Shown here piece by piece: positions 371 through 63,780 of a stretch of 64,000 bases of DNA. The position numbers and the translations under genes are program-made. Source of the DNA: Meandrina meandrites (lineage: Eukaryota; Cnidaria; Anthozoa; Scleractinia; Meandrinidae); the NCBI GenBank assembly GCA_963693305.1, contig OY855905.1, positions 42,041,895 to 42,105,894 on the forward strand. Direction: 5' to 3'. The notes under the pieces are model-generated. The model did not search any database. It worked only from the letters and a program-made list of their open reading frames with translations, and had not been told where the DNA came from. Position 1 is the stretch's first letter, and the number at the start of each line of letters is the position of its first letter.

Positions 371-537
371 CGGTGAGCCAAAGCTGTGACCAGTCTGATG
401 TGTAAAAACGATTTCAGAGATCTTCTTTACCAATTTCTTGTTATAGTTAATGAACGTAACAACTCCGGTATTCAAGCTTTTCGTTTTACCGTCTCTGAAT
501 GTTGTTGCTTTTTCGCAAATTCCGCCAGCAGCTCCAC
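371..537 (-). CDS. ADAM10: ADAM10-like exon 8: zinc-site exon with Glu-to-Gln change
   Basis: The acceptor is GTTTATCAG. It encodes GGAAGGICEKATTF, DGKTKSLNTGVVTF, then EIVFTHQTGHSFGSP. The codon at the catalytic position is CAG, one base from GAG. Donor GTAAGG follows directly in phase 0. Nothing else in the exon suggests decay: no stop, no frameshift, intact splice sites. Confidence 0.9.
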
Positions 538-3500
538 CTGATAAACACAGAGTTAGAAGATATAGCGCATGTTTTATTTTATTATCAAAATTTTGATTAA
601 TCATTTTCAGCTACAGTCACCAGCCATATTGCAAACAAACTTTTAAGATAAGTAAAACATCGAAAGTGTTTCCTCGATATACGGAAACAATTCGATTTAG
701 CCTCCTTCTTACAATAACCTTTCCTAATAAGCGAGTAACTTTGAATTTTGTTTGCTAATAAGCACGTCTATTCCAATGGCGAAGCGCGCGAGGTTAAAAA
801 TAGAATGCAAATGATTATACCCCATGATGCTCAGACAACATCAGCGTGGTCTGAGAGAAATAGAGGGAATCTAGGCGAAGTTTCAAAAAAGGTGTTTTAA
901 GACCACCTGCTGTTTTAGAAAGTGTTTTAGGAAAATCGTCCGCCATTCTGGTTTGTTTGTCTGAGTCTCGTCTGGGTCATTATGTCAATCGCGCGCTTCG
1001 CTATTGGCGCCACCTATAATAACTTCTATTAGAAATCCCTTAATTTTTTAAGTACATTAAATTGAGATCATCCATGGCCAATTTTCTGTCTCTAACAGCT
1101 TGTTAGCCAGGACACAAGAAATAAAGACGTTTGTTAGTAATCAAAGCAAGTTCCAGATAAGATCTCAATTATTCAGTTAAGTACGTAAAGCGGAAAACTC
1201 TGATAGCACTTCAAGGTGTGCATGTCCAGAGCGTATCAATGCTGCCGTAGGGAGCCTACTATCTATGACTTGTTCCCTGAGCTGAACCAATGGTGATAAA
1301 TTTAAAACTACCTTGTTCACCAACCCAAGCAAGACCAAGCACACCATTAGCAAAATCCCTGTACGTAAAGACGTAAGACAGGCACACATCATCATGGTTT
1401 TCCTCTGAGTTAATCTCAAGAAGTCTCTCCACTCCGATGTCGTTATCTGCATATGGATTGCTGGTGTTATCAGCATCCGAGCTGTCGTTGGCTCTCATTT
1501 TTAAGATTTGAAATCGAATGCCTAGCCAAAAAAATGAAACATCAAATTAAATCGTCCTTACCGTTTGAATTTCCATGCAAGAATGATAAACGACCGTTAT
1601 CCCTACAACGTTGCACCAGGCCAGTGCATTGCGAAGCAGATTGGCAAAAAGTATAAAAATAGCATTAAACTACCAAAGTAAAGGAAAAGTACTGACATTC
1701 TATAGCATGAGAACTGAAAGATACTGAAAAGAGATGTTTATGTTTCACTTGTCGACTGCTGGATATGTTTTCGTATTTACTACGTTCCTTTCCTTGGGTG
1801 CGCTTTGTGAAATCAAACAGCCTGCTTTTGCCATTTCAGATCCTTTACCATGATTTGCGAGGAAAGGGTAGAAAAAAGTTAACATTGGCAACATTTTAGA
1901 ACGTTTCTCAGAGTAAGATTGAAAACGATCCTTTTCGGTTTTGGGTTCCCTAGAAAGCTACTGTTCGTAATGTTTTGTTGCTGTTGCTGTTGCTGTTTCT
2001 GTTGTTGGCGTTGTTGTTGCTGTTGTGTCATTTGGTAGAATAAATGGGTATTTCTGACGCTGGCACAAGCCGTATTGTAACAAAGACTTGTTATATACTA
2101 CCCTGCAAGTAAGAGATCTTCGTCTCCCGAGTTAGTAATATACCTAACCTACCCTCAAATTGGCCATCCCCATCAAAGTCTGTATTTTCATAAATTGCAT
2201 TCGCAGCATTGACGTGGTCTGCCATTAGCAACAAAGCTCTCCGTTTATTACCTCCTGCCATGTTCTCAGTGAACAGATGATCAGCCTACAAAACAAAGAA
2301 AAAGCGGCATGGTATGGAACACGTTCCCCTTGTGACTTGTCTTGTGTGTAACTCTGACCCAGTGGAAGACTAGTAGTGCTAGTCGAAATATTGGCCATTA
2401 AAAATCCTGCCTATCTCCATTTCCGTCGTACTAGCCTTACAATTTAATTTGTTTGTTCTGAATTAACTTGTTAGTTTATTTTACATCAGGGTCCTAAAGC
2501 TTTAAAATGGAAACTGGGATTATTTTCCCCTTAATTCGCACGAGAAAAATTGGGATTTAATACCCTAACACAAGGATTTGAGTGATGGGAATTTAAACGG
2601 GGCATATTATTGTAGCGCCGTTTCTAGGAAAATGTCAAAAAAGTAAGAACTTTCATCGCTTCCTCTCCTCTGTGGTTTAATCAAACTCAATCTCGATCGG
2701 ATGGCGGTGTTTTTGAGGTGAGAATTTTGATGGTTTAGCGTCAGTTCGAACTTGAACTGGATAAGGTCGCTGCCGCCGGCTGTCCAGCTGTCTTCTCTAT
2801 TATCGAGTCTTTATCGGTCGGTACGTGATCTCAAACGGCTCAGGACGGCAAATTTATTGAACCATTCAGAGTAAACTTTGAGTTTTGTTGTAAATCGTTC
2901 GAAGCCGACGTAATAATTATCTATATATCTTCTATACGCTCCATTGATACAGCCAGACACAGGGTGGTCTGCCTGTGCATGGTGTTATGTTCTCGAGATA
3001 TGGTGCTCATCTCTAACCCCGCCCTTTGTCCATGAAGTTTAAAAAAATGCATCTGTATCTTGCTTGCATTCCAAATAAAAAAAAAAACTTGTGACAAGAA
3101 TTGTTTGCACTCGTGTCCCTTTTTAAGATGCGCTGGGAAACTGATTGGTGGGTAACATTTGCGTTTAGAATTAACTGTTCCTACATTAATCTGGAGTTTC
3201 GTTCGTTTCAACTCACCCTCATCTTTAAGGTGCAAGACAATTTTTTTGGATCAATTTCTCCAGCTGCCCTGCGATATCTGTTTATGAATGGCTCAAACTT
3301 GGCATCGCGTTCCTTTTCGATCAGGTTTTCTTTCACCGCTGACCTGAGCGATTTAATTAAGAGCAAGTAATTGAAAAAAAAAACTGATTTAAAGATGATT
3401 ATTTCAAAAGACCCCTCAGTTTCGCCCAAATGCCGCTTTTAGTAGGAATATATCTGTTAGTAACTTAGGTAAACGAGAAAAAAATGGTAATATTTGATCA

Positions 3501-6500
3501 TGGCAGATACAGAAAAGGTAATTGTAAGTTAAAGGAAAAACAAAACGTTTTTATGACAAGCATAGTATTCGCTGAAAACAAAAAAAGGTTTAAGTATATT
3601 TTCACCGACTAGAAGTTGTATGTATGTTTAATTCAGTGTACGTGTGCATGTTTTTTTTAACTGTACGTAAGGACGGAGCAACGAAAATTCTAAAGCAGTA
3701 TAACGTAGTTTAATGTAGTCTATTTGAAATGTAGTGCAAGTTGTGTAAAGTAGTGTAATTTGATTAAGTGAATTATATTGTAATGTAGCGCTATGTGTTT
3801 GAAATAAAGTGTATTCAAAAAAAAATCATGGCAGATCCAGGCCTTCAGCTAAGAAGCGGGCCCGCTTGACTATGAATGTTGAATTTTGCGAAGATAATTC
3901 CGGCATTTCAAAGAAAATGCGCTATTTCCGAAAAAAATAAGCCCGGGCCCCTCTCCTGGATCCGCTACTGATAATAATGTCAGTACAGTATTCATAAATG
4001 CAAATCAAAGCAAAGAGTTAGGCGTGCGAGTGGCAGCTACTCGTGTGTGTATTCCAAACGTGAACCTACTCGCAGACGTCTTCTAATAATTCATCTCTTC
4101 TGCTGAGATATAAGTAAATGTGTACCATTTTAAAGATTATAATGATTTACACTAAAAGGTTCAAATTTCCTTAATTTTGCATACCACTCGGGGTGAAAGG
4201 GACTCCGTTAGGACTATCAGTCTTAAGGCTTGTGGCGTACAATATGCCAAATATGGATGAGTTTCAAAACCATGAAGTTTTGTATAGGGTTTACCTCTTT
4301 ACTTTATCCATCCACCTCTTTGTTTTCTCACGCACGCCAAATTCTGGACCATAAGCACGAGGGTAATGCACGTCTCTGCTCTCGTACATAACGGAGTGAA
4401 AGTCTTTAGGAGCATCTTTGAAATACTCCTTGGCTGACTCAACAAAATACTCATCATTTCCTACATGAATTTTGCCTTCAAATACGCCATCATCAGATAT
4501 AAAACCATGGACCAAAGAATTTTTATGCCCTGGGTATAAACAAATAAAGAACAGTCACCAGCGTTTCTGGATTACCACATACCTCGTCAGGTTTTTTTGA
4601 TCAGTCTCGCGGTCCTTTTGATTGAGTTTTGATTGGATTAATTAGTGACCGCTTCCAAGATACCCATAAATGTTCAAGCAGCCCTTCTTGTCTGCCTTCC
4701 GTACAACGTAGTTCGGCAACGTTGTACGAATCTTTGTATTACAATGATTCGTCCGAAGGTATTAATTTAAGTCGCTGCATAACCAAATTTCTTTTTCGCT
4801 GCAAAATGAATAATAAAACAATTACCTCGCTTTTAATTGCGGATTATCCGGCGATTTTTTTTGGCCAATTCGGTCTATGACCTCGTCTGCTAAGTTTCAT
4901 GTACGGGATATTGCGCGCCATTTCGCACGATGATTTTTAATAAGCCTGATGCATGATAAGTCACTCAGTAACAAGCCTTATGAGTTTGACGCGAATCATT
5001 TTCAACTTTCTGCCACCTTCATGCAGTGTTCACGTGGGTGTTCTCTTCCTCGTTAATGATCTTTGTTTTGGGAATTGATTAAGGATAATATTTGTAAGCC
5101 GAGGCTTGAATAAGTGCTACCTTCTGTAGGCTTTAGAATAGGTACATCAAGGGCTTATTGCAGTCGGGGCAACAAGTGCCAGTTGATGACGCGATGTTCT
5201 CCGAGAAGTGGCTGAGCCCGCGGTTTTCGTCCCAGTAGTTGCTAAGTCATGACATATTTTGTTCGCGCGATTGCCTCCGGGGTACTCGTGCGCGTTGGCG
5301 CTTGTTTTTGATTGGATGAAATAATTCGGAAACTCTTCGAGTGCTTCAACGAAGATTTGCCAAAACTGGCACGTACTCCCTCGACTGATTTGAGAATTTG
5401 GCGATGGTAGCCCATATGTTTTAGATTACTGTACCTTCCACATCCCCTTTTACAATCATGGCAGGGTCAAAATCAGCGTTTTCTGCTGTAAATTCATCAG
5501 TAAAAAGGTCTACATCCCTTCTCAGGCGTATCTTAAAATCCCTACAAACAGAAACAACCAAAGGTGTTGAAATACGGAGAGTCATGATGCAGGGAGTGTC
5601 CACCAACATCTAGCAGGGATCAAATTATAAATGTGTACTCATGACCGAAAATGTAGCAGTTGAAAGGGGAGTCGGGAGTGTCCCGGCTCAGTGATCAATA
5701 TCGTAATAAATATGTATATCGTAATAAGTATTCTGTAAACTTTATTATCTTGCAAAAAACACCAAAGTGGTGAAAGCAAGTTAATATCAACTAAAAAGTA
5801 AAAAAAAAAATATGATTAAAATATTCAAATCCCCAGATGGGCAATAAGTAATTTCAATGTTCCGTAACATCCTGTCACAAATTCAAATTTGATGGACTTA
5901 AATCATTGTAATCCTGTACTCATTCCCTTTAATTGTTCTATTTTGCTCCGTAGAATCGTTTTACCCACATTATTTGTATATTTGGTGTTATTTGGCAATA
6001 CAGTGTGGAAATTTGGAAAGAGTGCTTTCGATAAACAGCCTGAGGACACTGTCCCTTTGCTGCAATCATCATTCATCATTGTCCAAGCTGCTACATTTTT
6101 TGTGTGTGTATGTTGTAATATTGTCCCTGCTATGTGTCGCTGCGACATGTGCTAGATGCAGCAACATGCATATGTTGCCTCCTTTGGAAAAATTCAGTTA
6201 AAGTTCAACTTTTTATCAGACGCAAGCCATCCATACATTTTCTCTAGGCCAGCAAAAATCTATGCCCTGTAGCACACGGAAAATGTATGCGACAGTGGTT
6301 TGTTCATCTTATGAAATGTTTTTTTGCATGTTTTGCATAAATGTTCCTTGAGTGGCTTGGTCATGCAATTACACACGATATCTGAAGTCACGATATCTGC
6401 ATGAAGCGCAATAATTGTCAGGCACAATACAACACGCGCAAATAATTAACCGCGCGGCCATGGGCCGAGCGCGGTTCTTGATTTACACGGGATTTATTAT

Positions 6501-9500
6501 TATTAACCGCGCGGCCATGGGCCGAGCGCGGTTCTTGCTCTGCACGGGATTTAATATTTTTTAACCGCGCGGCCATGGGCCGAGCGCGGTTCTTGTTTTA
6601 CACGGGATTTATTATTTTTTTAACCGCGTGGCCATGGGCCGAGCGCGGTTCTTGTTTTACACGGGATTTATTATTAACCGCGCGGCCATGGGCCGAGCGC
6701 GGTTCTTGCTTTACACGGGATTTATTATTAACCGCGCGGCCATGGGCCGAGCGCGGTTCTTGTTTTACACGGGATTTATTATTAACCGCGCGGCCATGGG
6801 CCGAGCGCGGTTCTTGTTTTACACGGGATTTATTAACCGCCCGGCCATGGGCCGAGCGCGGTTCTTGCTTTACACGGGATTTATTATTTTTTTAACCGCG
6901 CGGCCATGGGCCGAGCGCGGTTCTTGTTTTACACGGGATTTATTTTTTTTTTTTATGTCGGTGACCAGACGCAAACCTCCACTCGGCCAAATCGTGATCG
7001 GGACTGAATCACGCAACCTGTGATGTTTATTCGCCAAAAGCTGTTGAAACATGAATGTACGGAAAATGTTGCGGATATTGTTTTCTTTATTGTGTATAAA
7101 GTATATTTTCTTTTGGTTTTATTGAAGCGTTCGATTCAAAGCGAATGTTGAATACACTGAAAAAGGTATTACGTCAGCCATGGAATGCGCTGATGTTGCA
7201 GGTTTCACTTTCGTTACGCGACAAATAACATAGTGTTTCATTTGCATGTTTATGTCGGCAGAAGCGACGGTCATTAATTTAATTTGTTTCCTCTTCTGCG
7301 AGTATTTCTTGTGGGTTTAGGCAATCGAAGTGAATTCTTTGGCTATTTCCTTGAAGTGAGTTCAAATATTTGAAAGGAAATGAAATATTTGCTTAAGTAA
7401 ACAATCGAGCGTGCCCGAACGTGCAGGGGCTACGTCATTAGAAGGGAAAAATCCACAAGCTAAAGATAGCCGGGCACAACGTAAACCTCGGATTGTGTGA
7501 CTAATGTGACTACTTTGCTAGTCCTTTACTCATAATGCAAACAGATTAAATTTAACCGTGACTTTTGAGAAAGAAAGCTGTTAATTAGCCAAAAATATAA
7601 GCGCGGTTTTAAGTTGCTATAGCAACTTCTTGTTTTATGTCGGTGACCAGACGCAAACCTCCACTCGGCCAAATCGTGATTGGGGCTTTGAAATCACGCA
7701 ACCTATGATGTTTATTCGCCAAAAGCTGTTGAAACATGAATGTACGGAAAATGTTGCGGATATTGTTTTCTTTATTGTGTATAAAGTACATTTTCTTTTG
7801 GTTTTATCGAAGCGTTCGATTCAAAGTGAATGTTGAATACACTGAAAAAAGGTATTACGTCAGCCATGGAATGCGCTGATGTTGCAGGTTTCACTTTCGT
7901 TACGTGACAAATAACATTGTGTTTTATTTGCATGTTTATGTCGGCAGAAGCGACGGTCATTAATTTAATTTGTTTCCTCTTCTGCGAGTATTTCTTGTGG
8001 GTTTAGGCAATCGAAGTGAATTCTTTGGCTATTTCCTTGAAGTGAGTTCAAATATTTGAAAGGAAATGAATTATTTGCTTAGGTAAACAATTGAGCGTGC
8101 CCGAACGTGCAGGGGCTACGTCATTAGAAGGGAAAAACCCCTAAGCTAAAGATAGCCGGGCACAACGTAAACGTGTGACTAACGTGACTACTTTGCTAGT
8201 CCTTTACTCATAATGCAAACAGATTAAATTTAACCGTGACTTTTGAGAAAGAAAGCTCTAAATTAGGCAAAAATATAAGCGCGGTTTTAAGTTGCTATAG
8301 CAACTTCTTGTTTGTATTTTTTTTTTGTCGGTGACCAGACCCAAACCTCAGCTCGGCCAAATCGTGATCGGGACTTTTAATCTCGCAACTTGTGATGTTT
8401 ATTCACCAAAACCTGTTAAAACATTAATTTACGGAAAATGTTATGGATATTGTTTTCTTTATTGTGTATAAAGTATATTTTCTTTTGGTGTTATCGAAGC
8501 GTTGGACTCAAAGCTAACATTAAATACACTAAAAAAAGGTATTACGGCCATGGAATGCGCTGATGTTGCAGGTTCACTTTCGTTACGTGAGAGATAACGT
8601 TTTGTTTTCTTTGCAACTTTATATCGGCAGAAGCGACGGTCATTAATTTATTTGCACTTCTGCAAGTATTTCCTGTGGGGTTAGGCAATTGAAGTGAATT
8701 CTTTGGCTGTTTCATCGAAGCGAGTTCAGAGATTTGAAGGAAAATGAAATATTTGCGAAGGTAAACAATTGAGCGTGCCTGAACGTGCAGGGGTTACGTC
8801 ATTAGTAGGAAAAAACCAACAAGCTTAACACAGCCGGGGATAACGTAAACTTCGGATTGTGTGACTCGCGTGATTACTTTGATAGTCCTTCACTCATAGT
8901 ACAAACAAATTGAAACAAGAATGTATGGAAAATGTTGCGGATATATATTTTTTTATTGTGTGTAAAATTAATAGCGTTCAAATACACACTGAATTCATGC
9001 CCAAACATGTCGCAAGCGAAGTTCCAGCTTAAGACCATTACGTCATCACAAATTTCACAACGGCTATGGGCGTTGGTGCAATATTGGATTGTGTGACTCG
9101 CGTGACTACTTTGCTAGTCCTTTACTCTTAGTACAGAACAAATTTAATTTAACCGTGACTTTTCTGAGTAAGAAACCTGTTGGAGTAAATTTAAAAAAGC
9201 GCGGTTTTAAGATGCTTGCATCTTCTTGTTTTTCGTCGTTTCTTCCAGCACGAATCTGACTTCTTCGAATTTTAATTAAATTTTTGACGTTATAAATTAA
9301 AATCTTTGGGAGGCATTCGGTTCAGGCAACAATCTACTGAGACAGCTAAGGGTAGAAGATGCTGAAAACGGTTACTAAGCAAAACGCAGTGCTAATCAAA
9401 TGGAACCAGGATTTTGATCCATAGTCGAGTAAGCAAGATAATTAACGTAAGACACTGTAACATACTGAATCGAAATATTTTACAAAGGAAACGGTAAATT

Positions 9501-10053
9501 TGATGCAAATCGCTTTCAGGCCAGCGAATGAGAAACAGTGTGATGCAAACGAACAACAACAACAACAAAACTCCAGCGATTCCAGTGATTATATAAGTGT
9601 TAAAACCTAGAAGAAGTAATACATTACTATTTTTATACAACAACAACAACAAAACTGATACCACAAAGGTTTAATAACATTAATCTGTGTAGCAACTAAG
9701 TAATTATTACTGATTCAGTGTATCACGGTCTGAGCGTTAAAACTTACCTCTGATGAGTTTTTAAATTCAATTCAATGCGATGATCGCCGTTGGGACTTGA
9801 ACGTCTCACGCGTCCATGTTGCTTGAGTACTGGAGTTGTGTCATAGTTTAGAGGTTCATAGTGGTTTATAAAATCCCCCAGCGGCCGTCCTGTTAAGCAC
9901 AAACACGAAAATTGTACGCCAATCTTGTACACCGACACGAACGTTCAATGCGGAGGGATTTATAAGCCAGGAACGAACTTTTAACTTACGATATGACAAA
10001 GCAGAACTCCACAGAAGTACGAAAGAAGCAAAACAAACACGTAGTGTTGCCAT
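371..10053 (-). CDS. ADAM10: ADAM10-like metalloprotease-family protein, catalytically altered; 3' part off window
   Basis: Eight minus-strand exons join without a frame break: 9990-10053, 9748-9889, 5435-5541, 4295-4529, 3217-3343, 2153-2285, 1321-1521, 371-537 (1,176 nt, 392 residues). Order: signal peptide (1-20), ADAM10-type prodomain, two proprotein-convertase-like sites (RVRR ending at 51, RYRR at 205-208), then the reprolysin-like domain with ADAM10-typical stretches such as SEENHDD, GVLGLAWVG, GGICEK and KSLNTG. ADAM10 family members are type I membrane sheddases acting on Notch and other surface proteins. Here the zinc motif is HQTGHSFGSP: both histidines and the glycine are present but the catalytic Glu is Gln (residue 384), and the prodomain segment YGPEFGVREK lacks the cysteine-switch Cys. 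The last exon ends at SP with donor GTAAGG; the third zinc His, disintegrin and transmembrane parts must lie to the left. Family assignment is secure; loss of proteolysis is inference. Confidence 0.9.
1321..1521 (-). CDS. ADAM10: ADAM10-like exon 7: metalloprotease domain
   Basis: The acceptor is TTTGGCTAG. It encodes GIRFQILKMRAND, then NIGVE-like DIGVERLLEINSEENHDD, then VFTYRDFANGVLGLAWV. It ends in phase 1 at donor GTGAAC. Confidence 0.9.
1975..2030. repeat. GTT/GCT trinucleotide microsatellite
   Basis: Imperfect run of GTT, GCT and related triplets in an ADAM10-like intron. Confidence 0.8.
2153..2285 (-). CDS. ADAM10: ADAM10-like exon 6: start of metalloprotease domain
   Basis: The acceptor is TTTTGTAG. 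It encodes ADHLFTENM and HVNAANAIYENTDF, the first helix and strand region of the ADAM10 catalytic domain. Donor GTAGGT, phase 1. Confidence 0.85.
3217..3343 (-). CDS. ADAM10: ADAM10-like exon 5: end of prodomain with furin-type site
   Basis: The acceptor is CGCTCAG and the donor GTGAGT (phase 0). The exon carries NRYRRAAGE, fitting the R-X-R-R maturation site, then KKLSCTLKM leading into the protease domain. Phase fits both neighbours exactly, which is the main support for this short exon. Confidence 0.8.
4295..4529 (-). CDS. ADAM10: ADAM10-like exon 4: prodomain including the cysteine-switch region
   Basis: It encodes FEGKIHVGNDEYFVESA and DFHSVMYE, typical ADAM10 prodomain text. The following YGPEFGVREK occupies the place where vertebrate ADAM10 has its switch Cys, and no Cys is present. 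Donor GTAAAC, phase 2. Confidence 0.88.
5435..5541 (-). CDS. ADAM10: ADAM10-like exon 3: prodomain
   Basis: The acceptor is TGTTTGTAG. It encodes DFKIRLRRDVDLFTDEF and ends GDVEG with donor GTACAG, phase 1. The intron to exon 2 is 4.2 kb and holds the tandem repeat block. Confidence 0.85.
6448..6950. repeat. Hairpin minisatellite, nine units of about 54 bp
   Basis: Units start near 6448, 6504, 6562, 6622, 6675, 6729, 6783, 6834 and 6893. Each begins with a near-perfect hairpin: AACCGCGC, GGCC, ATG, GGCC, GA, GCGCGGTT. It is followed by CTTG, a T run, ACACGGGATTTATT and a variable T/A spacer that accounts for most length differences. Units are nearly identical, suggesting recent amplification or homogenisation. 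The array runs directly into the 680-bp tandem block. Confidence 0.92.
6950..9235. repeat. Tandem block of about 680-bp units (three copies plus a truncated fourth)
   Basis: Unit starts TGTCGGTGACCAGAC near 6957, 7638 and 8327; a partial copy is fused within the third from about 8911. Each unit ends with GCGCGGTTTTAAG, a short hairpin, then CTTGTTT. Units 1 and 2 are almost identical; unit 3 is clearly diverged. No long ORF is conserved among the copies. The GCGCGGTT plus CTTGTTTT ending is shared with every minisatellite unit, so the two arrays appear to be one family. Confidence 0.85.
9545..9656. repeat. Two AAC microsatellite runs
   Basis: (AAC)n tracts near 9551-9568 and 9640-9655 in an ADAM10-like intron. 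Confidence 0.7.
9748..9889 (-). CDS. ADAM10: ADAM10-like exon 2: N-terminal prodomain
   Basis: The acceptor is CTTAACAG. It encodes PLGDFINHYEPLNYD and the basic site GRVRRSS, where the ADAM10 prodomain has its upstream convertase site. Donor GTAAGT, phase 2. Confidence 0.85.
9990..10053 (-). CDS. ADAM10: ADAM10-like exon 1: start codon and signal peptide
   Basis: The ATG at 10053 opens MATLRVCFASFVLLWSSALS, a classic hydrophobic leader, followed by TCATATC and donor GTAAGT. It ends in phase 1 and joins exon 2 to make the codon CGA (Arg22). Confidence 0.85.
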
Positions 10054-14954: not shown

Positions 14955-15340
14955 TCAGCGCCATAGCCATCCGTCAAAAAGCAACAACCAAGTAGCTACC
15001 ATTAAAGAAGGGTATCCTAGCAACCAATGAACGTGTAGCACGTGGCCATTCCCGACTGGTGGAATATAACCATCCCTGTTGCAGAAATCCTCTTGGCAGC
15101 ACGTTACATTGCATGACTTTCGTCCTATGGCCTTAACGACGTGTTCTTCGCAATAGTCTGGTTTGCAAACTTTAGGAGGAACGCAATCTCTGGTGAGTTC
15201 TTTGCTACCGTCATGCCTCTCGGTCCTCTGGGTGGAGCAGAATGTTAGATCAGCCGTGCAATTTTGAGTGGCGGGTTTTTGACAAGAGGTTCCGTTGAAC
15301 GTGGTGTCATCGTAGCACGAGTAGCACTGGAGGGCATCAA
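14955..15340 (-). CDS. Ly6-like exon 3: three-finger domain, GPI signal and stop
   Basis: It encodes the whole mature domain in one exon. Ten or more cysteines fit a full three-finger fold. N-glycosylation sequons are visible (NGT, NCT, NVT). The stop TGA is at 14955-14957. Confidence 0.85.
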
Positions 15341-18110
15341 CTAAAAAACGAATGAAATATTAATCAAATTTAAAACATAAAAAAAAAATCTGGAGAGCGT
15401 CAGTGTAGGTACAGTTGAACGCAAGCCAAATTGCCGCCAATTCTTCCGTAGAATTGCTGTAGCAAATTTAGAAATTTGGATATAACCACCCCCCGGGTGG
15501 GACGCTAGTCCAACGCTCAGTTCAACTGCAGCATTTCATGAGGATTGACAAAGTTCGCCAGAGCCACTGTATACACATGGGTGGAGAGAAACAACTTACT
15601 TAATCTTCTCCATCCCCTGTGCGACATAAGGCAACAAATGGAGAGAGAGACAAGGTGAGTGTAAAGAGTCTTGCCCAAGAACACAACACAATAGTCCCGG
15701 CCTGATCTAACCAGGAAGGCACGATCTGAGGCCCAGTGCGTTATGGTGGATGCAAAATAGATCTTTTTAATTTTTCTTCTCGGCACTAATTCCCCCGAAA
15801 ATATCTCTGGTTTCCGGCGACGCTAAGATGACGTATCTTTCTCTCAGTGCCACCGGAAATCAGAAAGCAGAGGGAAAAGAGGTTTACCTCGGTGTAAGAA
15901 CCTGTGATATTTTTCTTTGTTTTGGAGCTATTGTTTTCCTTCTCTATCTTTGTTTTGCCAGCTCTTTGTTGTGTTGTTCGTTCTTTGTTTTACGTCGGTG
16001 AGTTTCACAGGTTCTTCCGAGGATCGGATGAGCCGGGAAAAGGGCAGACGGACTGGACTAAGGTCTATTCAAAACGAGATGTATAAGTCATGTTCATCTC
16101 CCCAACCCCCCCCCCCCCTCCCCCTCCCCACCCACATTAGCCACAATGAAACAACCGAAAACCCAAGATCGCCCAAGGGGGAAGGGAGGTAGGCATTTGA
16201 TCACAACAGTGGAAAGCAAAAGCCGCTCCCTTGAAGTTTCGAGAAATCGGGATTCCATTGTATCTGATATTTGAAGGTTCATTGTATAACACAATATATA
16301 TAATAATATCTCGTGAAGTATTCGCCCGAATTCAAAAGAAAACTATGGAATAACGACTGACTGTTTACCTGAAATATGAAACAAAGCGCCAAATACAAGG
16401 CACGTCCAGCACAACAACGCCATCTTCTCACTTTGAATATAAAGCTCACACCTAAAAAAAAGCAGCCCGTCACAAGATTACATGTAAAAGCAATTCCAGT
16501 TAAAGATGATTGTCTTTTAGATTTGTAAGAAGATTGCATGATGCTTTTTAATGAATTGCCATAAACGTTATCTAAACTGAGCAAGCCGTATCCAGTCAGT
16601 ATTTTAACTGAACATCCTGGAGGCCGGCGAAGGATCGAGCGGTGTCGTTTTCAGTAAATTTTCTTTCTAATACTGGATGAATTTCCGATTCTAATTTTCA
16701 ATACTCAATTTCAGACCTGGCCGTTTGCGTATCGACCGTATTTAAAGAAATAAATCGCGCCAAATGACATTTTTGACTGAAGAATCGCGAGGAGGCATGA
16801 AATTATCACCAGCATATTGAATATTCGTTACACTTCCAAGAGCATTGAGCACCCTCTTCGTGAGGAATGAAAGATTACGTGACGCACCGCGGGCTTCAAT
16901 AAAAAAAAAACAGCAAGCACCAACATGAAAGTGCTACACTCGATACTACACGATGAAAGCGGTTGTGTGAGGGCTAAATACGGCGAAATAGTAAGCTTTC
17001 GGCGGACATCGGCCTACATCAACGGTGAGCCAATTTACATACAAATACATCAAGAAATATTCGTTACTATTACAAGAATAATTAAATGAATGAAATGATC
17101 CTCGCAGTGCGAAATCTGAAAAAAATAATATCGTATTACAAATCCAACATTGAATTTCAACACGCGGTTGCAATTAGAAGACCACCGAACTGACATTTCT
17201 TCAATTTTAATAAAAGACACCATCGGCAACGAGGCGGGAACACCTTTTAAAAGCTTTCATGTATTTAAATTTAAATGTACCTGCACAGACGGCAAATTTG
17301 CATAAATACCTCCTCTTACTTTGGTGGGCATATTAACATTGGCATATGTTCTTCAGTTGATGATGAGGAAATTTCTTGCACAACTTGTACTGTCTTTGTG
17401 TTACTCGACACTGCTCGCCAATAAAACCTCACGCCACTTCGAAATGCCGGCATTTGAGCGGATCTAGAGTTAAAGCCATATTCAACATCGCTTTATGATT
17501 TTTTAGAGCCAATATTCAAAATTCAATTACAGTATTCCGCTTCGACAACTCCGACTTTCGTGATCTATCGATCTTTCGTGATCTCCGTTTATGACAGCTT
17601 CATCTAAATGTCCTTAGCTGCGATTCGCTTCGCTCCAGAAAGCCTTGAAACACATTTAGAAAAGATCCGTAATCAGATGTATAAATATAACTTGTATATC
17701 TGTACAACGAAGAATGAAATCTTACCTTGTTTACAAATAGAAGTTCTGTGCCAAGCATAAATTTAACTTTAAATCCATCTCGATTTTTTGCGTTTAGAAC
17801 CGGAGTGCGTCAATATTCCCAGTAACATCAAATCTGAAGTCTTCTCTTCCGCTAGTTTCAGACGTTATTAAAATCGACAGCTACATGTATTTTGAACACA
17901 TACAGTTAGGCTTGTTTAGTTTGTCACTTTGACCGAAATCGAATGTTTTGAAAGTGAAATTTACTTTGGACAAAATCGTCTATTCTGTTACACGTTAAGG
18001 CCAGAGAGGTAAGAACGATTACCAAACAAATAGCTACATAAATTACTCACCAACATCGAGATTTTCTGCCTTACCGCCTTCGTGCAGCCCGTGATCGAAA
18101 TTCGATATAA
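14955..18110 (-). CDS. Ly6/uPAR three-finger domain protein, probably GPI-anchored
   Basis: Coding exons 16369-16423 and 14955-15340 give 146 residues with an exact phase-1 join (donor GTAAAC, acceptor TTTTTTAG). Residues 1-18 (MALLCWTCLVFGALFHIS) form a signal peptide. The mature part starts VDALQCYSCYDD and ends its domain with CNVTCCQEDFCN, the signature spacing of Ly6/uPAR domains, with Cys residues throughout. The C-terminus is hydrophobic (WLLGYPSLMVATWLLLFDGW) and stops almost at once, as in GPI-anchor signals. Such proteins are cell-surface or secreted ligands and receptor modulators; the ligand here is unknown. A good polypyrimidine acceptor at 16452 suggests the start exon begins at 16451 and that a 5'UTR exon lies upstream, ending at about 18051 with donor GTGAGT. 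Confidence 0.85.
15517..15790 (-). repeat. SINE-like dispersed sequence
   Basis: The minus strand carries TTCTTGGGCAAGACTCTTTACACTC and TCTCTCCACCCATGTGTATAC-type text, resembling retroposon tails widespread in invertebrate genomes. It sits in the Ly6-like intron. Family name not assignable by eye. Confidence 0.4.
16369..16451 (-). CDS. Ly6-like exon 2: short 5'UTR, start codon and signal peptide
   Basis: The acceptor TTTTTTTTAG precedes a 28-nt leader and the ATG at 16423. The exon codes 18 residues plus one base before donor GTAAAC. Confidence 0.8.
17080..17120. repeat. Fragment related to the SINE region at 24140
   Basis: GAATGAAATGATCCTCGCAGTG here resembles GATGATCCTCGCAGTG at about 24148. 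Only a short piece is recognisable. Confidence 0.3.
18051..18110 (-). promoter_or_regulatory. Putative 5'UTR exon and promoter of the Ly6-like gene
   Basis: On the minus strand an ATTTATATC TATA-like motif near 18105 is followed by a possible first exon ending at donor GTTG/GTGAGT (18051). The upper boundary is a guess. It is consistent with the 5'UTR acceptor seen at 16452. Confidence 0.35.
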
Positions 18111-24345: not shown

Positions 24346-24456
24346 ATTCACTCTGAGACCTCAATTTTACACTCAGAATTAATAGCTGCTTGCACACAGT
24401 TTTTTTTTTTATATTGAAGCAGCTTATATCTACGGTTACTGTTTTTCATCTTTCAG

Positions 24457-24849
24457 TTTTAACGTTCTTGTCCTCGGTAAAAGGACAATGCAGTTCAAGT
24501 GGCATCACCCTTACTGGGTCGTCTGGGAATTTTTCAAGTCCAAACTACCCGTCCAACTACCCTGACCGTGAGACGTGTAGGTGGATTATAACTGCTCCAC
24601 AAGGCCACTTAGTGCGGCTGAGTTTTCAGGCATTCGAATTGGAAAGCTGTGTGATCTCGTCACCAACATGCAGCTGTGACCACTTTGAGGTTAGGGATGG
24701 AACAGTAGCTAGCTCTGAACTACTGGGAAGATATGGTGGAAACGAACATCCCGCTGCAGTTCTATCATCTGGGCGAAACATGTGGATAGAGTTTGACACA
24801 GATTTTACAGATAACGAGAGAGGATTTTTTGCAACATACACTGCTATTG
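24457..24849 (+). CDS. CUB gene exon 2: CUB domain 1
   Basis: Acceptor CATCTTTCAG, donor GTATGA. It encodes GNFSSPNYPSNYPDRETCRW, CDHFEVRDG and NMWIEFDTDFTDNERGF, diagnostic of CUB, with conserved Cys residues and acidic calcium-site residues. It is intact. Confidence 0.9.
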
Positions 24850-24930
24850 GTATGAAGTTCCCCAATATCCGTATGGCCAATTTAAGTTTTACATTATAAA
24901 ATATTTTCAGCGTTAAACTGGTTTAAGTCA

Positions 24931-25165
24931 GAGCAGGGGTGGTGCAGTGGTGAGGGCGCTCGCCTTCCACCAATGTGGCCCAGGTTTAATTTCCGGAGTC
25001 GCCGTCATATGTGGGTTGAGTTTATTGTTGTTTCGCATCGTTGCTTCTAGGGTTTTCCTCGGTTTCTCTTGTTTTCCTCACTCCACAAAAACCAACACTT
25101 CCAAATTTCAATTCGATCGGGAATACACGGCCCAACAAGCTTCTAGCTTTAAATATCACCGCGTC
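24931..25165 (+). repeat. tRNA-derived SINE, second family
   Basis: GGTGGTGCAGTGGTGAGGGC and GGTTTAATTTCC are A- and B-box like; the tail (TGTGGGTTGAGTTTATTG, TTTTCCTCACTCC, AATACACGGCCCAACAAGCT) is shared by common coral retroposons. It lies in the CUB gene intron. Confidence 0.7.
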
Positions 25166-25824
25166 TAAACAAACGCAATTCAGTTCTTTTTTTTCTGAAT
25201 CTAGCTCGCAGACTATGCCAATAAAATGTGCAGCTCAGCTGACTCGCTTGCTCGCTTGCTTGCTCGCTTGCGCAAATCCGCACTTTTATCTAAAAGGAAC
25301 AAAACTCACCGGAATTTACTAGCAAATACTCCATGAGTAAAAGCCGCATTTTACAGAAATACAGTTTTAGTTTTAGTGAATCAACACTGTCTGACAATAC
25401 GTTTTATGTAGACTTTCAGTAAAACGAAGTGCAGTTATATCACGCTGCTGCTAACAGTTTTAGCAAACTTCAATAAAGAATTTTTGTTTGATTAATGTTC
25501 CCTACTTCAGTAATTTGTCAGTTGTTGTTTATTTAAGGGCCTTGGTGATATCACCAGAATTTGCTTCTAAATGAGTGATCTTGATTAATAAATGAAGGTG
25601 TCTATTTATCTTGGCCTGGAAGAAATATGTACCAGGGTATCAGTAACAAGTATTTGGGGTGTCTTACAGGGTCACACACTTTTCCTGACAAACACAAACT
25701 TACTCTCTCCAGAATGAAAATAAAGTACGCTCACCATTTCAAAGAGAGATAAATATCATTTTATTATTGCTGTTATCGTTGTTATTGTTTCTTGCCATAA
25801 ACGTTTTCCTCTATTTTTTATCAG

Positions 25825-25848
25825 ATGCAAGTCAAGGTCCAAATAATG
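25825..25848 (+). CDS. Candidate 24-nt micro-exon (linker)
   Basis: Preceded by CTATTTTTTATCAG and followed by GTAAAG. It encodes DASQGPNN in phase 1-1, so inclusion or skipping keeps frame. Confidence 0.45.
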
Positions 25849-26009
25849 GTAAAGTGAGTGGTTAAGAAGACCAGTGAAACGGGTCGGAACGTCGATTTAA
25901 AGCTAATTTTAACCTCGATAAGTAGACAACTTTATATTTTTGGATATTATTTGGTGCGATTTTGTCATGTGATAAACCTTTTGCATTGTTCTTTTCGTTT
26001 TTATTTCAG

Positions 26010-26470
26010 CTGCAAGTGAATGCCCGACAAACGGAATGTTGAGTGGTGCAAAGGGCAGCTTTATCAGTCCCGGATTTCCTTTGACCTACCCAGTCAGTGT
26101 CACGTGCACATGGATAATAGAAGTTCGTGAAGGTCATCTTGTGGAACTAACATTTCCTACTTTTCAACTGGAGACTTCCGCCACTTCATCATTCTGCACG
26201 TGCGACCATGTTGCAGTAAGAGATGGCCAAGATGGAAATTCGCGTGAATTAAAAGAGCTTTGTGGAGATAACGTATCACCCACAGAACGCATACGATCCA
26301 CAGGTCGATATATGTGGGTAGAATTCGTTAGAGAAGGAATATTAGCGAAATAAAAATTGAATAATAATAATATTCCTTCTCAAATGTTTTACAAAACATT
26401 TTGTTATTAGAATTCGTTAGTGACTCCAAAACAGTAGGGAATGGATTCGATGCGTTGTTCAAAGCTGTTC
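26010..26470 (+). pseudogene. CUB domain 2 exon, interrupted by insertion
   Basis: Acceptor TTATTTCAG, donor GTAAGT. Without the 76-bp insert at 26332-26407 plus one 13-bp duplicate the exon is 372 nt and encodes a normal CUB (SPGFPLTYPVSVTCTW, CDHVAVRDG, FKAV). With the insert the frame ends at TAA (26351-26353). Confidence 0.85.
26332..26407. mobile_element. 76-bp double-hairpin insertion inside the CUB2 exon
   Basis: Arms AGAAGGAATATTA and TAATATTCCTTCT form hairpin one; AAATGTTTT/AAAACATTT forms hairpin two. TAGAATTCGTTAG is duplicated at 26319-26331 and 26408-26420. Confidence 0.85.
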
Positions 26471-26702
26471 GTAAGTATTCAGGATGAAAGCCTTCATAAT
26501 GGTTGTTTGTTTTATTTCCTTTGAGTGATTTAGCCTAACAAATTGTGTGCGCGATATTATCCTCAAGTGATTCCAATTGGTGCATTCAAACGTCCTTTTT
26601 ATATTGTCACAACAAAATCTTTCTTTTGTTTGTTTGTTTTTTTATACCATTTCAGCATCAGATATAATTAAGTTGCCTTTTTTGTTTTCTTTTGCTTTTC
26701 AG

Positions 26703-27071
26703 CTGCGAGTGAATGTCCGGCAAATGGTGTATTGCGTGGTACAAATGGCGTATTCACCAGTCCAGGATTTCCTTCCGCCTATCCAAACAGTGTCACGTGC
26801 ACATGGATAATAGAAGTCCCTAAAAATAATCATGTAGAGCTAATGTTTGATACCTTTCTACTGGCCATGGAGAGTTGTGGCTTATGGTGTTCGTGTGATG
26901 ACCATGTGCAAGTGAGAGATGGCCGAAGTGCAAGCTCGAGCAAATTAAAGACGATTTGTGGAGACGACAAACCCCGAGCAATACGATCCTCTGGCCGATA
27001 TCTGTGGGTGGAGTTCGACAGTGCCTCAAGAACAACAAACAGTGGATTTTATGCATCTTTCAAAGCTGTCC
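26703..27071 (+). CDS. CUB gene exon: CUB domain 3
   Basis: 369 nt, phase 1-1, acceptor TTGCTTTTCAG, donor GTGAGT. It encodes SPGFPSAYPNSVTCTWIIEV, CDDHVQVRDG and LWVEFDSASRTTNSGFYASF. It is intact. Confidence 0.88.
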
Positions 27072-27374
27072 GTGAGTAAATCGCAGGTCGACCTGTGATG
27101 AAAATACTTTGCTGGTGTTCATAAAATAATTTTCTTTCTTCTACCTCTTCTTTAAACCTCTTAAGATTAAACTCATAACACTGCCCCGACTCCTCAATAC
27201 AATAACGCATAACGCTCTAGACACAGGTACACGTTGCGGAGCCAGGGAGGGCGAGAATTCAACACAAGGGCGGGCACGCACACGATCTTTTTCTTTTGTT
27301 TTCCTCTCCATGCGTTGTTCATGTGTTATGTTTGTTGCCGCTGTGCGTTTTTTATTTCTTGTTTTTTTCTTCCT

Positions 27375-27406
27375 CCCCCCCTCCTCCCCCCCCCCCCCCC
27401 CCCCCA
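27375..27406. repeat. Poly-C tract
   Basis: Homopolymer C run in the CUB3-CUB4 intron. Confidence 0.9.
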
Positions 27407-27643
27407 AGAAGCTAATAAGTGCTTCCCATTTATTATTTTGCTCAATATTCGTCCATTGCATGCATTATGTTATTAAAACCCGCGTTGCCTGGAGCCCGCG
27501 TTCATTTCGTAACAACGACACCAAATGCTTTCTAGGTAATGTTTTGAAACAATTCAAATAACAAAATTCTCGCACCCCATGCTCTTGACATAGCTGACAA
27601 CTATCTAATCATTATTTCACTAAGTTTCGCATTTGCCGACATT

Positions 27644-28000
27644 TACAGTAAAACCCCGCTTACTCGAACTCGCAAGGGACACGAAAAATAGTTCAAGTTA
27701 GCGGGGTTGGTGTTTAATTTCAAAATCTTTCGTTAATGATTAATAAGATTCTGTATTCATTCAACAATGTTTCATTAAGCTTGGGAATTTTATTTTGTCA
27801 TGTTGCTATCAATGAAGATTTAGATTTACACAGGTGAAAAAGCACTGGACTGGCACTTTGAGGTTTCCCGAGCAACATTTTTTAATTCGAGTTAATTCGA
27901 GTTATCGGGGGTAGATTTGAGCCAAGAGAAAGCTAAATTAGTTCGAGTTAGCGGGGAGTTTGAGTGAACTGAGTTCAAGTTAGCGGGGTTGCATGAGTAA
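27644..28000. mobile_element. Pogo/Tigger-like non-autonomous element
   Basis: It begins TACAGTAAAACCCCGCTTAC with TCGAACTCG, the usual form of Tigger-type ends, and inverted AGTTAGCGGGG motifs recur to about 27990. The right end is degraded. Confidence 0.6.
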
Positions 28001-28639
28001 TCAAATGGTGAAATTAGGAAATAATTTCACGCGCGTTTTGTCAAAATTCTTCAGGCGAGGGAAATTATTAGAATTTTGACAAAACACAAGTTAAATTTTT
28101 TTACTTGCTTGTCGTATCGAAAAATCCAAGCTTTGAAAATATCAATGCATACATTTCGGCTAAAGTTGGCAATTTTCAGAATTTGTCGAATCAAACCGAA
28201 AAAATCGTTCTTGCTGTTTATAAAATGTTTCAAAGTTGAGTATTGTTGAATACTCATTACATTATTGGCTATAATGCGTCATGAATGAACTGAAAACAGC
28301 GACCGTGTGCAAAACGCTAAAAAATCCGGTCGATCCTATTCGTGTAACTGGCTGGCTTCGTGTTTTAAAGGCGTTTTGACGTTTTGAAATGTAAATTATC
28401 GCTCAAAGTTTATTACAGGACCAAAGCAAACTGGCCTGGATGAAATTTAAGCGAAAACGTCCATCTTGACATTGAGACGTGGCAAACGTTGCCATGGCAA
28501 TTTTGTAATTTCACATGTGAAATTATGAATTAACGCTAAAATTTTGCGCCAAAATTAAGGGGTAATTTGTCACCCATGATATTACTAGCGCTGATTGGTT
28601 AAAACGAGCTGTATTTATTTAAAATACTTGCCATATTTG

Positions 28640-28745
28640 GGAGAGAGTAGTATTTCAAGGGTTTGACTTTCCATATTTGGAAGAGAGTAGTATTTCAAGG
28701 GCTTGAAATACTACTGTCTTCCAAATATGGCAAGTGCCAGCAAGA
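28640..28745. mobile_element. Palindrome with internal tandem copy
   Basis: ACTTGCCATATTTGG, GAGAGTAGTATTTCAAG occurs twice in tandem, then inverted (CTTGAAATACTACT, CCAAATATGGCAAGT). Confidence 0.65.
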
Positions 28746-29004
28746 CAAACAAGATGGGGGACAATTCAATCGTTTAGGGGGTGGACATGTGGACATTTCA
28801 ATGGGATTAGCCGTCAAAGTGCACAAAAAAAACTAGGAATATGGAAAGCAAATTACTTTTGTGTGGTGTAACTGAGCTGAAAAGAGGACTTTGTTGCTTA
28901 AACGTTCAAAACGGAAGCTTTAATGACATCTGTTAATGAGCAACGATCGTCGTAAGTTTTAATTACTCGGGTAGGATTAGATATTTGCCTTGTATTATAA
29001 ACAA

Positions 29005-29166
29005 ATAATAGCACGGGTTGTACGTAGTATTTGGAAATAGTACCGGCTTGTAATATTCAAAATTGTCAAAATATCACTCGCCCAAGCGGCTCGTGATATT
29101 TTGGACAATTTTGAAATATTACTCGCCGCATTATTTCCAAATACTACTACAACTCGTGCTATTACC
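29005..29166. mobile_element. Palindromic MITE
   Basis: AATAGCACGGGTTGTACGTA at the left and its inverse at 29145-29163 bracket inverted CAAAATTGTCAAAATATCAC arms. Confidence 0.65.
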
Positions 29167-30299
29167 TAAACTAATTTCATCTTCGCCAAGTTCAGTTACG
29201 CATTGGTCAGCGGAATTACAAACAAAAGTCTATGATCCATTGGCAGCGGAATTACAAACAAAAGTCTATGACCCACTGACTAACCGTGTGAGTGAATTCG
29301 CTTGTCTACTTAACTCCTATTTTGAATTCTGCAAAATTAATAGTCGTAACAATGGCAAAGAAGAATAATTTTGTGCTGCATGCCATCGCCTTTTCCACAT
29401 AATCGACTTCAGCAACAGAAAAGTTTGAACGTTGTCCTGTAATGTAAAAATATCTAACGCAAACCAAAGCACTTTCTTGTCAAAACCTCTTCGAAAACTC
29501 AAGAGTATGTAACTTCATGGCTTGTGAGAACTGTGTTTTAATTATAATTATGCAGTAGTTTTATTTCTCCATTCGTTTATCGAAATAGTAGCAGTAGAAG
29601 TTACAACAATAGCCATCGAGGGTTTATTTTTTATATAATTTAGTGTGACACTTAATTACATGATGCACTATGGGGAGATTAGATTTTTTTACGCCGTAGG
29701 AATTCAACGGAATTATTGTCACCACTAACTATAATGGCGGTGTGCCATGATACAAGATGTTTCCGTCGCAGTTTTGTTTTTCAGTGCCTGTGAGCTTTTA
29801 AAATAAAACACTTGTACTTCCTTACCGTTTGATTGCAAAGCTCTACGATATAAAACTAGGGTCGGTTTACAAAGCTATCGTGCTAATCTGGTATTAGTGT
29901 CGTCTTGCTACCGGTGCTTGTTTGTTTGTTATAATTTAAAAATAAACCTGCTGTTATAACGATTTTTTTACCTTGACGTAAAACGTACTCATGTAAAATT
30001 GTGGAGCAGGAAGACGACCGCAATTTTTTTATTAGTCATTTTCCAGGAACAAGGTCCCTAGATTTAGTTTTCATTAATACTACGAAATCTACGAAACTTC
30101 CTCGAGGTAGCTCCTTGTTTTTGTATGGGGTAATGGTTTTTTCCTTCAATTAATTGATCTGATTATTGAAAAGAATAAAGCGCTACATTGCGCAATAATG
30201 AACGAAAGGCCCCAATGTAGCAGGGTCTTTGACCACGTACACAGTTGTACAGCAAAGAAACTTTTCGCATTTCTTTCATTCTTTTCGTTTGTTTTGCAG

Positions 30300-30628
30300 C
30301 TGCGAGTGAATGCCCGAAAAACGTATCCATTAAACTACCCAAATGACGTCACCTGCACTTGGATAATAGAGGTTCCGGAAAATCACATTGTGGAAGTAAC
30401 ATTTGAAACTTTTGAACTGGAGGAATGTTTCCTTTTGTCGTTGCCAGTGTGCAGGTGTGGCTATGTTGAAGTCAGAGATGGGAAGGATGGAAATTCGAAT
30501 ACGTTAGAGAAGCTTTGTGGAGGCAGCGAACGTTACTCGCTGAAATCTACTCAGCGATATATGTGGGTGAAGTTCGAAAGCGACTCGAATACACCGCGCA
30601 AAGGGTTTAATGCAACGTTCAAAGCTAG
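30300..30628 (+). pseudogene. CUB domain 4 exon with frameshifting deletion
   Basis: The start matches the other CUB exons (acceptor GTTTTGCAG, ASECPKN), then the region corresponding to the first loop up to SPGF is missing and the domain resumes out of frame at YPLNYPNDVTCTW. Length is 329 nt versus 369-372. In the frame inherited from CUB3 a TGA appears within 16 codons. Donor GTAAGT is kept. Confidence 0.8.
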
Positions 30629-49292: not shown

Positions 49293-49615
49293 TATGAGTT
49301 CGAGTTAGAAATTTCGAGTTCGAGTTAGAATTAGAATTTCGATTTTGAGTTAAAATTTCGACTCTAGTTAAAAGGAAGGGCCTGAAAAGTTACTGATTTC
49401 GTGATGGAAGACGAAAAAAAAGAAAGAAAACGAAAAGCCCACAACATAGCGTGACATTTTCGCAGTTGGTCACGCATAGTGTCGCCCTTATCAACAAATG
49501 AAAGCTAACCGCAAGCAAACCAGAGTGGAACTAACCGCAAGCAAACCAGAGTGGAGCTAACCGCAAGCAACTCGATATTTTAACTCGAACTCGAAATTTC
49601 TAACTCGAACTCGTG
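49293..49615. mobile_element. Inverted-repeat element just upstream of the GH31 start
   Basis: GAGTTCGAGTTAGAAATTTC at the left is inverted near 49581-49610. The middle holds three tandem CTAACCGCAAGCAAACCAG-type copies. It ends about 220 bp before the start codon. Confidence 0.7.
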
Positions 49616-49833
49616 AAATCGACAGACCCACTTTTGAGTTTGTAAAACTAACTTTAACATGTGAAGTTTCACGCAAATCCGCTTTCAGCTTTCAAGTGGA
49701 GTTGCCCTGGGTACGGGTGATGGTGGTCACGAGACGCATGCAGACCATGCAGACCCGTGACCCGGCCGCGGAATGCAAAAATGCCTCTATTTTATTCTCG
49801 GAGGTAGAAAGGGAAGGTTTGGGGCTGTTCAGT

Positions 49834-63780
<13,947 letters not shown>

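What the first reader, a model, noticed from the sequence alone, without database searches (positions are those of the whole stretch)
371..537. ADAM10-like protein with catalytic Glu replaced by Gln
Sequence: the zinc motif reads H-Q-T-G-H-S-F-G-S-P with codon CAG at the catalytic position; all other motif residues visible are kept, splice sites are canonical, and all eight exons are open and in phase. Established: in the HExxHxxGxxH metzincins this Glu polarises the catalytic water, and changing it in ADAM10 (E384) gives an inactive, dominant-negative enzyme. By my exon joining the Gln is also residue 384. Inference: a constitutive inactive ADAM10 paralogue that could bind substrates, tetraspanins or Notch ligands without cutting, regulating an active ADAM10 elsewhere in the genome.
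Basis: partly seen in the sequence, partly recalled or inferred. Interest (0 to 1): 0.85.

Follow-up and report, generated by a model that had tools for sequence, protein, structure and literature searches.

The report
Enzyme-dead, tail-swapped ADAM10 gene copy
A stony coral genome carries, near its normal ADAM10 cell-surface cutting enzyme, a second copy that has lost its cutting residue, its safety latch and its usual membrane tail but is otherwise kept intact, so it probably works by binding rather than cutting.

Summary
Window exon 371-537 (minus strand) reads HQTGHSFGSP with codon CAG. The complete gene (14 exons, 670 aa; the last six exons lie off the left window edge) keeps all three zinc histidines but has Gln for the catalytic Glu (residue 387, not 384). 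An ordinary ADAM10 (HETGHNFGSPHD, switch Cys, TM, tail) lies 74 kb away, divergently oriented. It does not look like a pseudogene: no stops, exons 1-12 equal in length to the active copy, the other conserved ectodomain cysteines kept, dN/dS about 0.3. Oculina patagonica has an HQTGH, switch-less paralogue too, and another switch-less copy with the same GPI-like end (but HELGH). Trees over exons 1-12 group the three (99/99); domain trees are mosaic. Most likely a non-cutting, lipid-anchored binding or decoy paralogue of ADAM10. Inactivity is inferred from published Glu-to-Ala mutants; anchoring and decoy function are inferred and untested; no expression data. Inactive ADAMs are common, but the eight inactive human ones that a review names do not include ADAM10 or ADAM17.

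The parts
9990..10053 (-). exon 1, start codon and signal peptide (MATLRVCFASFVLLWSSALSY)
   Evidence: homology to N-termini of P0001, P0067, P0068; donor GTAAGT
9748..9889 (-). exon 2, prodomain
   Evidence: acceptor ACAG, donor GTAAGT; homology
5435..5541 (-). exon 3, prodomain
4295..4529 (-). exon 4, prodomain; carries the switch position, Cys replaced by Phe (GPEFGV, residue 168)
   Evidence: alignments; gene B has GPGCGV
3217..3343 (-). exon 5, end of prodomain with furin-type RYRR site kept
2153..2285 (-). exon 6, metalloprotease domain
1312..1521 (-). exon 7, metalloprotease domain
371..537 (-). exon 8, metalloprotease domain with HQTGHSFGSP; CAG codon for Gln387 at the catalytic position
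   Evidence: exons 9-14 continue off the window at C3:42034736-42039610

Best explanation
The gene is a duplicate of ADAM10 that has been turned into a non-cutting protein. It should be made with a signal peptide and prodomain, be cut by furin at RYRR, keep a folded, zinc-holding metalloprotease domain with Gln in place of the water-activating Glu, keep disintegrin and Cys-rich domains, and be attached to the outer membrane by a GPI anchor rather than a TM helix. It most likely acts by binding ADAM10 substrates or partners without cutting, as a decoy or competitor of the ADAM10 encoded 74 kb away. Shown: gene structure, residue losses, intact frame, average purifying selection, the neighbour with HE, the HQ state in Oculina. 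Inferred: loss of activity, furin cutting, GPI anchoring, decoy role.
For: HQ motif with the zinc ligands kept. HQTGH also in Oculina P0077. Switch Cys replaced in A (F), P0077 (I) and P0070 (I); in A it is the only conserved ectodomain Cys lost. GPI-like last exon GSGVPRLLPAIWTLGVAILYYIMQ is 48% identical over 23 residues to the end of P0070; a search of the 163.8-kb region found no other clear copy, none at gene B. No stop in 670 codons; exon lengths 1-12 identical to gene B; dN 0.105-0.116, dS 0.34-0.42; 0 of 2000 neutral simulations without a stop at each of the divergences 0.15, 0.20 and 0.25. Clade of A, P0077 and P0070 at 99/99 over exons 1-12 with the two trait columns left out. ADAM10 with HE in the same genome. 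The ADAM10[E384A] transgene in mice is described as catalytically inactive and dominant negative (PMC2647556, passages); murine E385A is inactive (PMC7873107, abstract and passages).
Against: No expression or protein data. GPI anchoring judged by eye and hydropathy only. The published mutants seen are Glu to Ala, not Gln. P0070 shares the switch loss and the GPI-like end but keeps HELGH, and four octocoral-type proteins lack the switch Cys yet keep HE, so these traits do not require inactivity. The P0077 gene model ends without the GPI-like tail; its last 11 aligned residues are nearer the canonical copies (45%) than A (0%). In the protease-domain tree P0070 leaves the clade and joins canonical P0068 (85/90); in the disintegrin/Cys-rich tree P0077 joins gene B and P0068 (86/92). 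A+P0077 alone is only 84/74. A changed 15 of 214 canonical-invariant sites against 2 of 216 for gene B, so constraint is relaxed.
Confidence: 0.6

Rival explanations
1. Decaying pseudogene: the catalytic Glu and switch Cys were lost because the copy no longer does anything.
For: Two key residues lost; more changes at canonical-invariant sites (15 of 214) than gene B (2 of 216) and a longer tree path.
Against: No stops or frameshifts, exon lengths 1-12 equal to B, GT-AG at every intron of the model; dN/dS near 0.3; neutral simulations lose the open frame; the other conserved ectodomain Cys kept; HQ in Oculina too.
Confidence: 0.1
2. Adhesion or recognition protein: the disintegrin/Cys-rich head binds partners unrelated to ADAM10 substrates, as inactive ADAMs do, with no role in controlling the active ADAM10.
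For: Disintegrin and ADAM10 Cys-rich domains found by Pfam; [quoted passage not shown]
Against: The protease domain is kept better than the head: identity to B is 75-84% in exons 6-9 against 59-73% in exons 10-13, which suggests that its surface still matters.
Confidence: 0.25
3. Weak or altered protease: Gln still allows slow hydrolysis, or the copy cuts special substrates.
For: The three zinc His and the following Asp are kept.
Against: Glu to Ala at this site abolishes ADAM10 activity (PMC7873107; PMC2647556; Gln itself not in the passages seen); the switch Cys that would restrain an active enzyme is gone.
Confidence: 0.04
4. Assembly or sequencing error at the Glu codon.
For: Only one assembly seen, no reads.
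Against: CAG differs from the GAA of gene B at two bases; Oculina P0077 has HQ too, and A and P0077 share R240, L375, I379, Q387 and D542 at sites invariant in the canonical set.
Confidence: 0.01

Closest known systems
ADAM10 / Kuzbanian (human ADAM10; structures 6be6, 8esv)
   Same: Prodomain with furin-type site, reprolysin, disintegrin and ADAM10 Cys-rich domains; gene A is 77% identical to its neighbour gene B and 68-77% to the six other canonical coral copies listed for it
   Different: Gln for catalytic Glu, no switch Cys, no TM helix, stalk or cytoplasmic tail, GPI-like end
Oculina patagonica P0077 (ACROYT_G007694) and P0070
   Same: P0077 shares HQTGH and switch loss; P0070 shares switch loss and GPI-like C-terminus
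   Different: P0077 model lacks the GPI-like end; P0070 has HELGH and looks partly exchanged with the canonical Oculina copy (exons 7 and 10 at 90% to P0068)
Inactive ADAMs (ADAM2, 7, 11, 18, 22, 23, 29, 32)
   Same: ADAM proteins predicted to be catalytically inactive, with other functions (PMC8124674, passages)
   Different: Other ADAM lineages; ADAM10 and ADAM17 are listed there as active
Laboratory ADAM10 E384A / murine E385A
   Same: Change at the same catalytic Glu (PMC2647556, PMC7873107)
   Different: Man-made Ala mutants of the TM-anchored protein; the mature inactive murine form is strongly reduced, though some reaches the surface
GPI-anchored MMPs (MT4-MMP, MT6-MMP; recalled)
   Same: Metzincin held by a GPI anchor instead of a TM helix
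   Different: Active enzymes of the MMP family; recalled, no call made

Membership tests
ADAM10 family | Reprolysin + disintegrin + ADAM10-type Cys-rich domains | tested here: met
   Pfam PF13574, PF00200, PF21299 all above cut-off
ADAM10 family | Sequence groups with ADAM10 rather than other ADAMs | tested here: met
   Best solved relatives are ADAM10, then ADAM17 (326-aa part); sits inside coral ADAM10 in trees, which held ADAM10-type proteins only
ADAM10 family (active enzyme) | HExGHxxGxxHD | tested here: not met
   HQTGHSFGSPHD
ADAM10 family (active enzyme) | Cysteine switch in the prodomain | tested here: not met
   C168F; four octocoral-type proteins with HE lack it as well
ADAM10 family | Type I TM helix and cytoplasmic tail | tested here: not met
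   Exon 14 encodes a short hydrophobic end with no tail; gene B has TM and tail
Inactive ADAM (works like) | Open, selected gene with broken catalytic motif | tested here: met
Inactive ADAM (works like) | No proteolysis in assay | not testable with these tools
   Needs purified protein
GPI-anchored protein | Small omega-site region, spacer, hydrophobic C-terminus with no tail | tested here: inconclusive
   GSG + VPRLLPA + IWTLGVAILYYIMQ fits by eye; hydropathy peak; no predictor run

The most novel reading that the evidence does not exclude
Some stony corals evolved a dedicated, lipid-anchored, enzyme-dead ADAM10 that acts as a natural dominant negative: it holds Notch or adhesion-molecule substrates, or ADAM10 partners, at the cell surface and so limits shedding by the neighbouring active ADAM10. 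The GPI anchor would let it escape the removal from the cell that inactive TM-anchored ADAM10 undergoes.
Probability: 0.3. Interest if true: 0.8.

Novelty: new variant of a known kind. Interest (0 to 1): 0.6.

Why it matters
ADAM10 is a central sheddase and Notch protease, and its E384A form is used as a laboratory dominant negative. A naturally kept, inactive ADAM10 with a swapped anchor beside an active copy would be a built-in control on shedding, and gives an evolutionary test of which ADAM10 parts matter without catalysis. The three changes (latch, anchor, catalytic Glu) and the signs of gene exchange between copies make the order of events testable in more corals.

Tried and rejected
Pseudogene: judged unlikely on open frame, equal exon lengths, dN/dS and the HQ state in Oculina. 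Base error: judged very unlikely, two-base codon difference and Oculina HQ. Gene B as an allele of A: rejected, dS about 0.4, opposite strands 74 kb apart on one contig, different C-terminal exons. A third close copy in this genome: whole-genome searches with P0077 and P0070 gave only A and B on C3 as close copies, plus a divergent single copy on C2 (38-40% in its longest match) and an array of eight on C2 (39-46% in the longer protease-domain matches); of these nine, eight were read at the motif and have HE. The invariant-site test does not prove constraint on A: A changes 15 of 214 sites invariant in the canonical set; controls B 2 of 216, P0067 2 of 216, P0068 2 of 216, P0001 11 of 212, P0069 0 of 214.

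Literature: nothing found on an inactive ADAM10 in corals (one unrelated paper), on pseudoprotease ADAM with catalytic glutamate (one cancer review, not read), on cnidarian ADAM10 duplication with Notch (listing of 7, none read), on GPI-anchored ADAM together with ADAM10 (8 of 9,590 listed, none of the 8 holds the phrase, one unrelated paper), or on ADAM10 pseudoprotease paralogues (listing of 7, iRhom and others, none read). Of the 5 papers and the 4, three were read in passages (PMC2647556, PMC4848645, PMC8124674). (Oculina genome papers) was seen as a listing only. The library holds open-licence papers only. A search for the ADAM10 switch Cys by number gave no paper, so which Cys is the switch rests on recall and on its conservation, plus the general statement in PMC4848645 (passages). 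One search stopped on an index error and was repeated.

Full report
What was checked. The exon at window 371-537 on the minus strand reads HQTGHSFGSP with codon CAG and has GT-AG splice sites. Eight exons in the window join in phase into 395 aa, with the Gln at residue 387.

The whole gene. The window is G000:C3:42041895-42105894 of a 551 Mb assembly. Reading the neighbouring stretches gives six more exons off the left edge. Gene A therefore spans C3:42034736-42051947, minus strand, 14 exons, 670 aa, no internal stop. The motif completes as HQTGHSFGSPHDN: three zinc histidines and the following Asp are kept. Pfam finds reprolysin, disintegrin and ADAM10 Cys-rich domains. The exon joins were set by homology and splice signals, not by RNA.

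The active copy. Gene B lies at C3:42126284-42146491 on the plus strand, 74 kb from A and divergently oriented, 774 aa, with HETGHNFGSPHD, the switch Cys (GPGCGV), a TM helix and a cytoplasmic tail. A and B are 77% identical over an alignment of 649 columns. Whole-genome searches with two Oculina proteins found only these two close copies.

Three changes. Relative to canonical coral ADAM10, A has (1) E387Q; (2) C168F at the switch position; (3) a shortened exon 13 and an exon 14 that encodes GSGVPRLLPAIWTLGVAILYYIMQ and then a stop, in place of stalk, TM and tail. Of 39 columns with Cys in at least 9 of 11 canonical sequences, A lacks two: the switch Cys, and one just behind the TM helix. The new end looks like a GPI-attachment signal: small residues, short spacer, hydrophobic stretch to the last residue. 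That is a judgement by eye; no predictor was run.

Relatives. Protein searches returned 66 hits (all listed), 737 hits (120 listed) and 309 hits (120 listed); hits beyond the lists were not seen. Of the 277 distinct proteins held, 265 had a readable motif: 261 HE, 3 HQ, 1 HA; 12 had none. The coral HQ is P0077 of Oculina patagonica (HQTGHNFGAMHD, switch Cys replaced by Ile). The other two HQ proteins are short unnamed environmental predictions: P0048 is 91% identical to P0045, which has HE, and P0054 is 72% identical to a Geodia sponge protein, so they look like separate losses. Oculina P0070 lacks the switch Cys and has the GPI-like end (48% over 23 residues with A exon 14) but keeps HELGH. 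Oculina P0068 is canonical. P0068, P0070, P0076 and P0077 share one reported contig length; the locus numbers G007694 (P0077) and G007702 (P0076) suggest neighbourhood, which is inference.

Trees. With the two trait columns left out, A, P0077 and P0070 form one group at 99/99 over exons 1-12, 88/97 on the window part alone, and 99/97 in the prodomain. A and P0077 pair at 84/74 overall. Single domains disagree: in the protease domain A pairs with P0077 (94/94) while P0070 pairs with canonical P0068 (85/90); in the disintegrin/Cys-rich part A pairs with P0070 (96/95) while P0077 joins gene B and P0068 (86/92); in the prodomain P0070 and P0077 pair (91/59). P0070 is 90% identical to P0068 in exons 7 and 10 but 70-71% to A there. 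The simplest reading is that the ancestor had all three changes, as A still does, and that Oculina copies exchanged pieces with their canonical neighbour. Mixed gene models in Oculina, or repeated independent losses, are not excluded. In the window genome too, exons 1, 2 and 4 are closer between A and B (dS 0.13-0.14) than the rest (dS 0.45-0.53), and intron 1 still aligns, which points to gene conversion.

Selection. Over 567 codons of exons 1-12, A against B has dN 0.105-0.116 and dS 0.34-0.42 by four methods. All twelve exon lengths are equal. Starting from B, 0 of 2000 neutral simulations lacked a stop at each of divergences 0.15, 0.20 and 0.25; 6 of 2000 at 0.10; 91 of 2000 at 0.05. Splitting dN of the non-converted exons (0.140) by tree paths (A 0.24, B 0.09) and halving dS gives a rough dN/dS of 0.4 on A and 0.15 on B; this is hand arithmetic without an outgroup at DNA level. 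A changed 15 of 214 sites invariant in the canonical set; controls changed 2 of 216 (B, P0067, P0068), 11 of 212 (P0001) and 0 of 214 (P0069). So A is constrained, though less than B.

Structure. A model of P0077 (mean pLDDT 73.5, pTM 0.59, 30 sequences) finds human ADAM10 first in the PDB (6be6, 45-46% identity, E 5e-48; also 8esv). Query TM-scores against the ADAM10 entries ranked 1-5 are low to moderate (0.36-0.48) and rmsd is high (6.8-14), so domain positions differ. The spliced window protein itself was not modelled, and such a model cannot tell Gln from Glu in function.

Mechanism. Published work supports loss of activity when this Glu is changed: transgenic ADAM10[E384A] is called catalytically inactive and dominant negative, and lowered the Notch target Hes5 by about 50% in 15-day mice, though at 5 months the authors found no regulation of Notch-1 and Hes5 was only slightly changed (PMC2647556, passages). 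Murine E385A is inactive, and the mature inactive form is strongly reduced in cells, although some inactive protein reaches the surface (PMC7873107, abstract and passages). That was seen with TM-anchored protein, so a changed anchor might let an inactive copy persist; this is my inference. Loss of the latch fits a protein with no activity to restrain, but P0070 and four octocoral-type proteins show that the latch can go while HE stays. One review lists eight inactive human ADAMs and places ADAM10 and ADAM17 among the active ones (PMC8124674, passages); [quoted passage not shown]

Verdict. A real, selected, very probably enzyme-dead paralogue of ADAM10 with a swapped C-terminal end. Its identity is near certain; inactivity is very likely; the GPI anchor is likely; the decoy role is a hypothesis.

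Noticed in passing
L002-L008; G000:C2:38.70-39.34 Mb: An array of eight more distant ADAM10-like copies (39-46% to P0077 in the longer protease-domain matches); the seven read at the motif are near-identical there and have HEFGHSFG.
   Followed up: partly
L001/L019; G000:C2:12947338-12952228: A divergent single ADAM10-like copy with a 430-aa open frame and HELGHGFG, 38-40% identical in its longest match.
   Followed up: partly
P0048, P0054, P0030 (unnamed environmental proteins): HQ in two and HA in one distant ADAM10 relative; P0045 (91% to P0048) and P0023 (75% to P0030) have HE, so the catalytic Glu seems to be lost repeatedly.
   Followed up: partly
P0082, P0084, P0086, P0088 (Dendronephthya and three unnamed proteins that group with it): Switch Cys missing although HE is kept, so the latch was lost in another cnidarian line too.
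   Followed up: no
window 9748-10053, 4295-4529: Exons 1 and 2 (with intron 1) and exon 4 are much more similar to gene B than the rest: likely gene conversion.
   Followed up: partly
window 6441-9135 (intron 2): A tandem array of a GC-rich palindromic unit (spacing mostly 54-59 bases) followed by blocks repeated at about 685-base spacing, up to 97% alike.
   Followed up: partly
window 14955-15359 (-): Ly6/uPAR-type three-finger domain (Pfam) with a hydrophobic C-terminal end, perhaps itself GPI-anchored.
   Followed up: partly
window 24357-30635 (+): CUB domains in two frames scanned (24357-24899, 26672-27079); a third similar frame at 30111-30635 was not scanned.
   Followed up: partly
window 49561-50262 (+): Trefoil domain (Pfam); looks like the start of an alpha-glucosidase-type protein (recalled resemblance).
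   Followed up: partly
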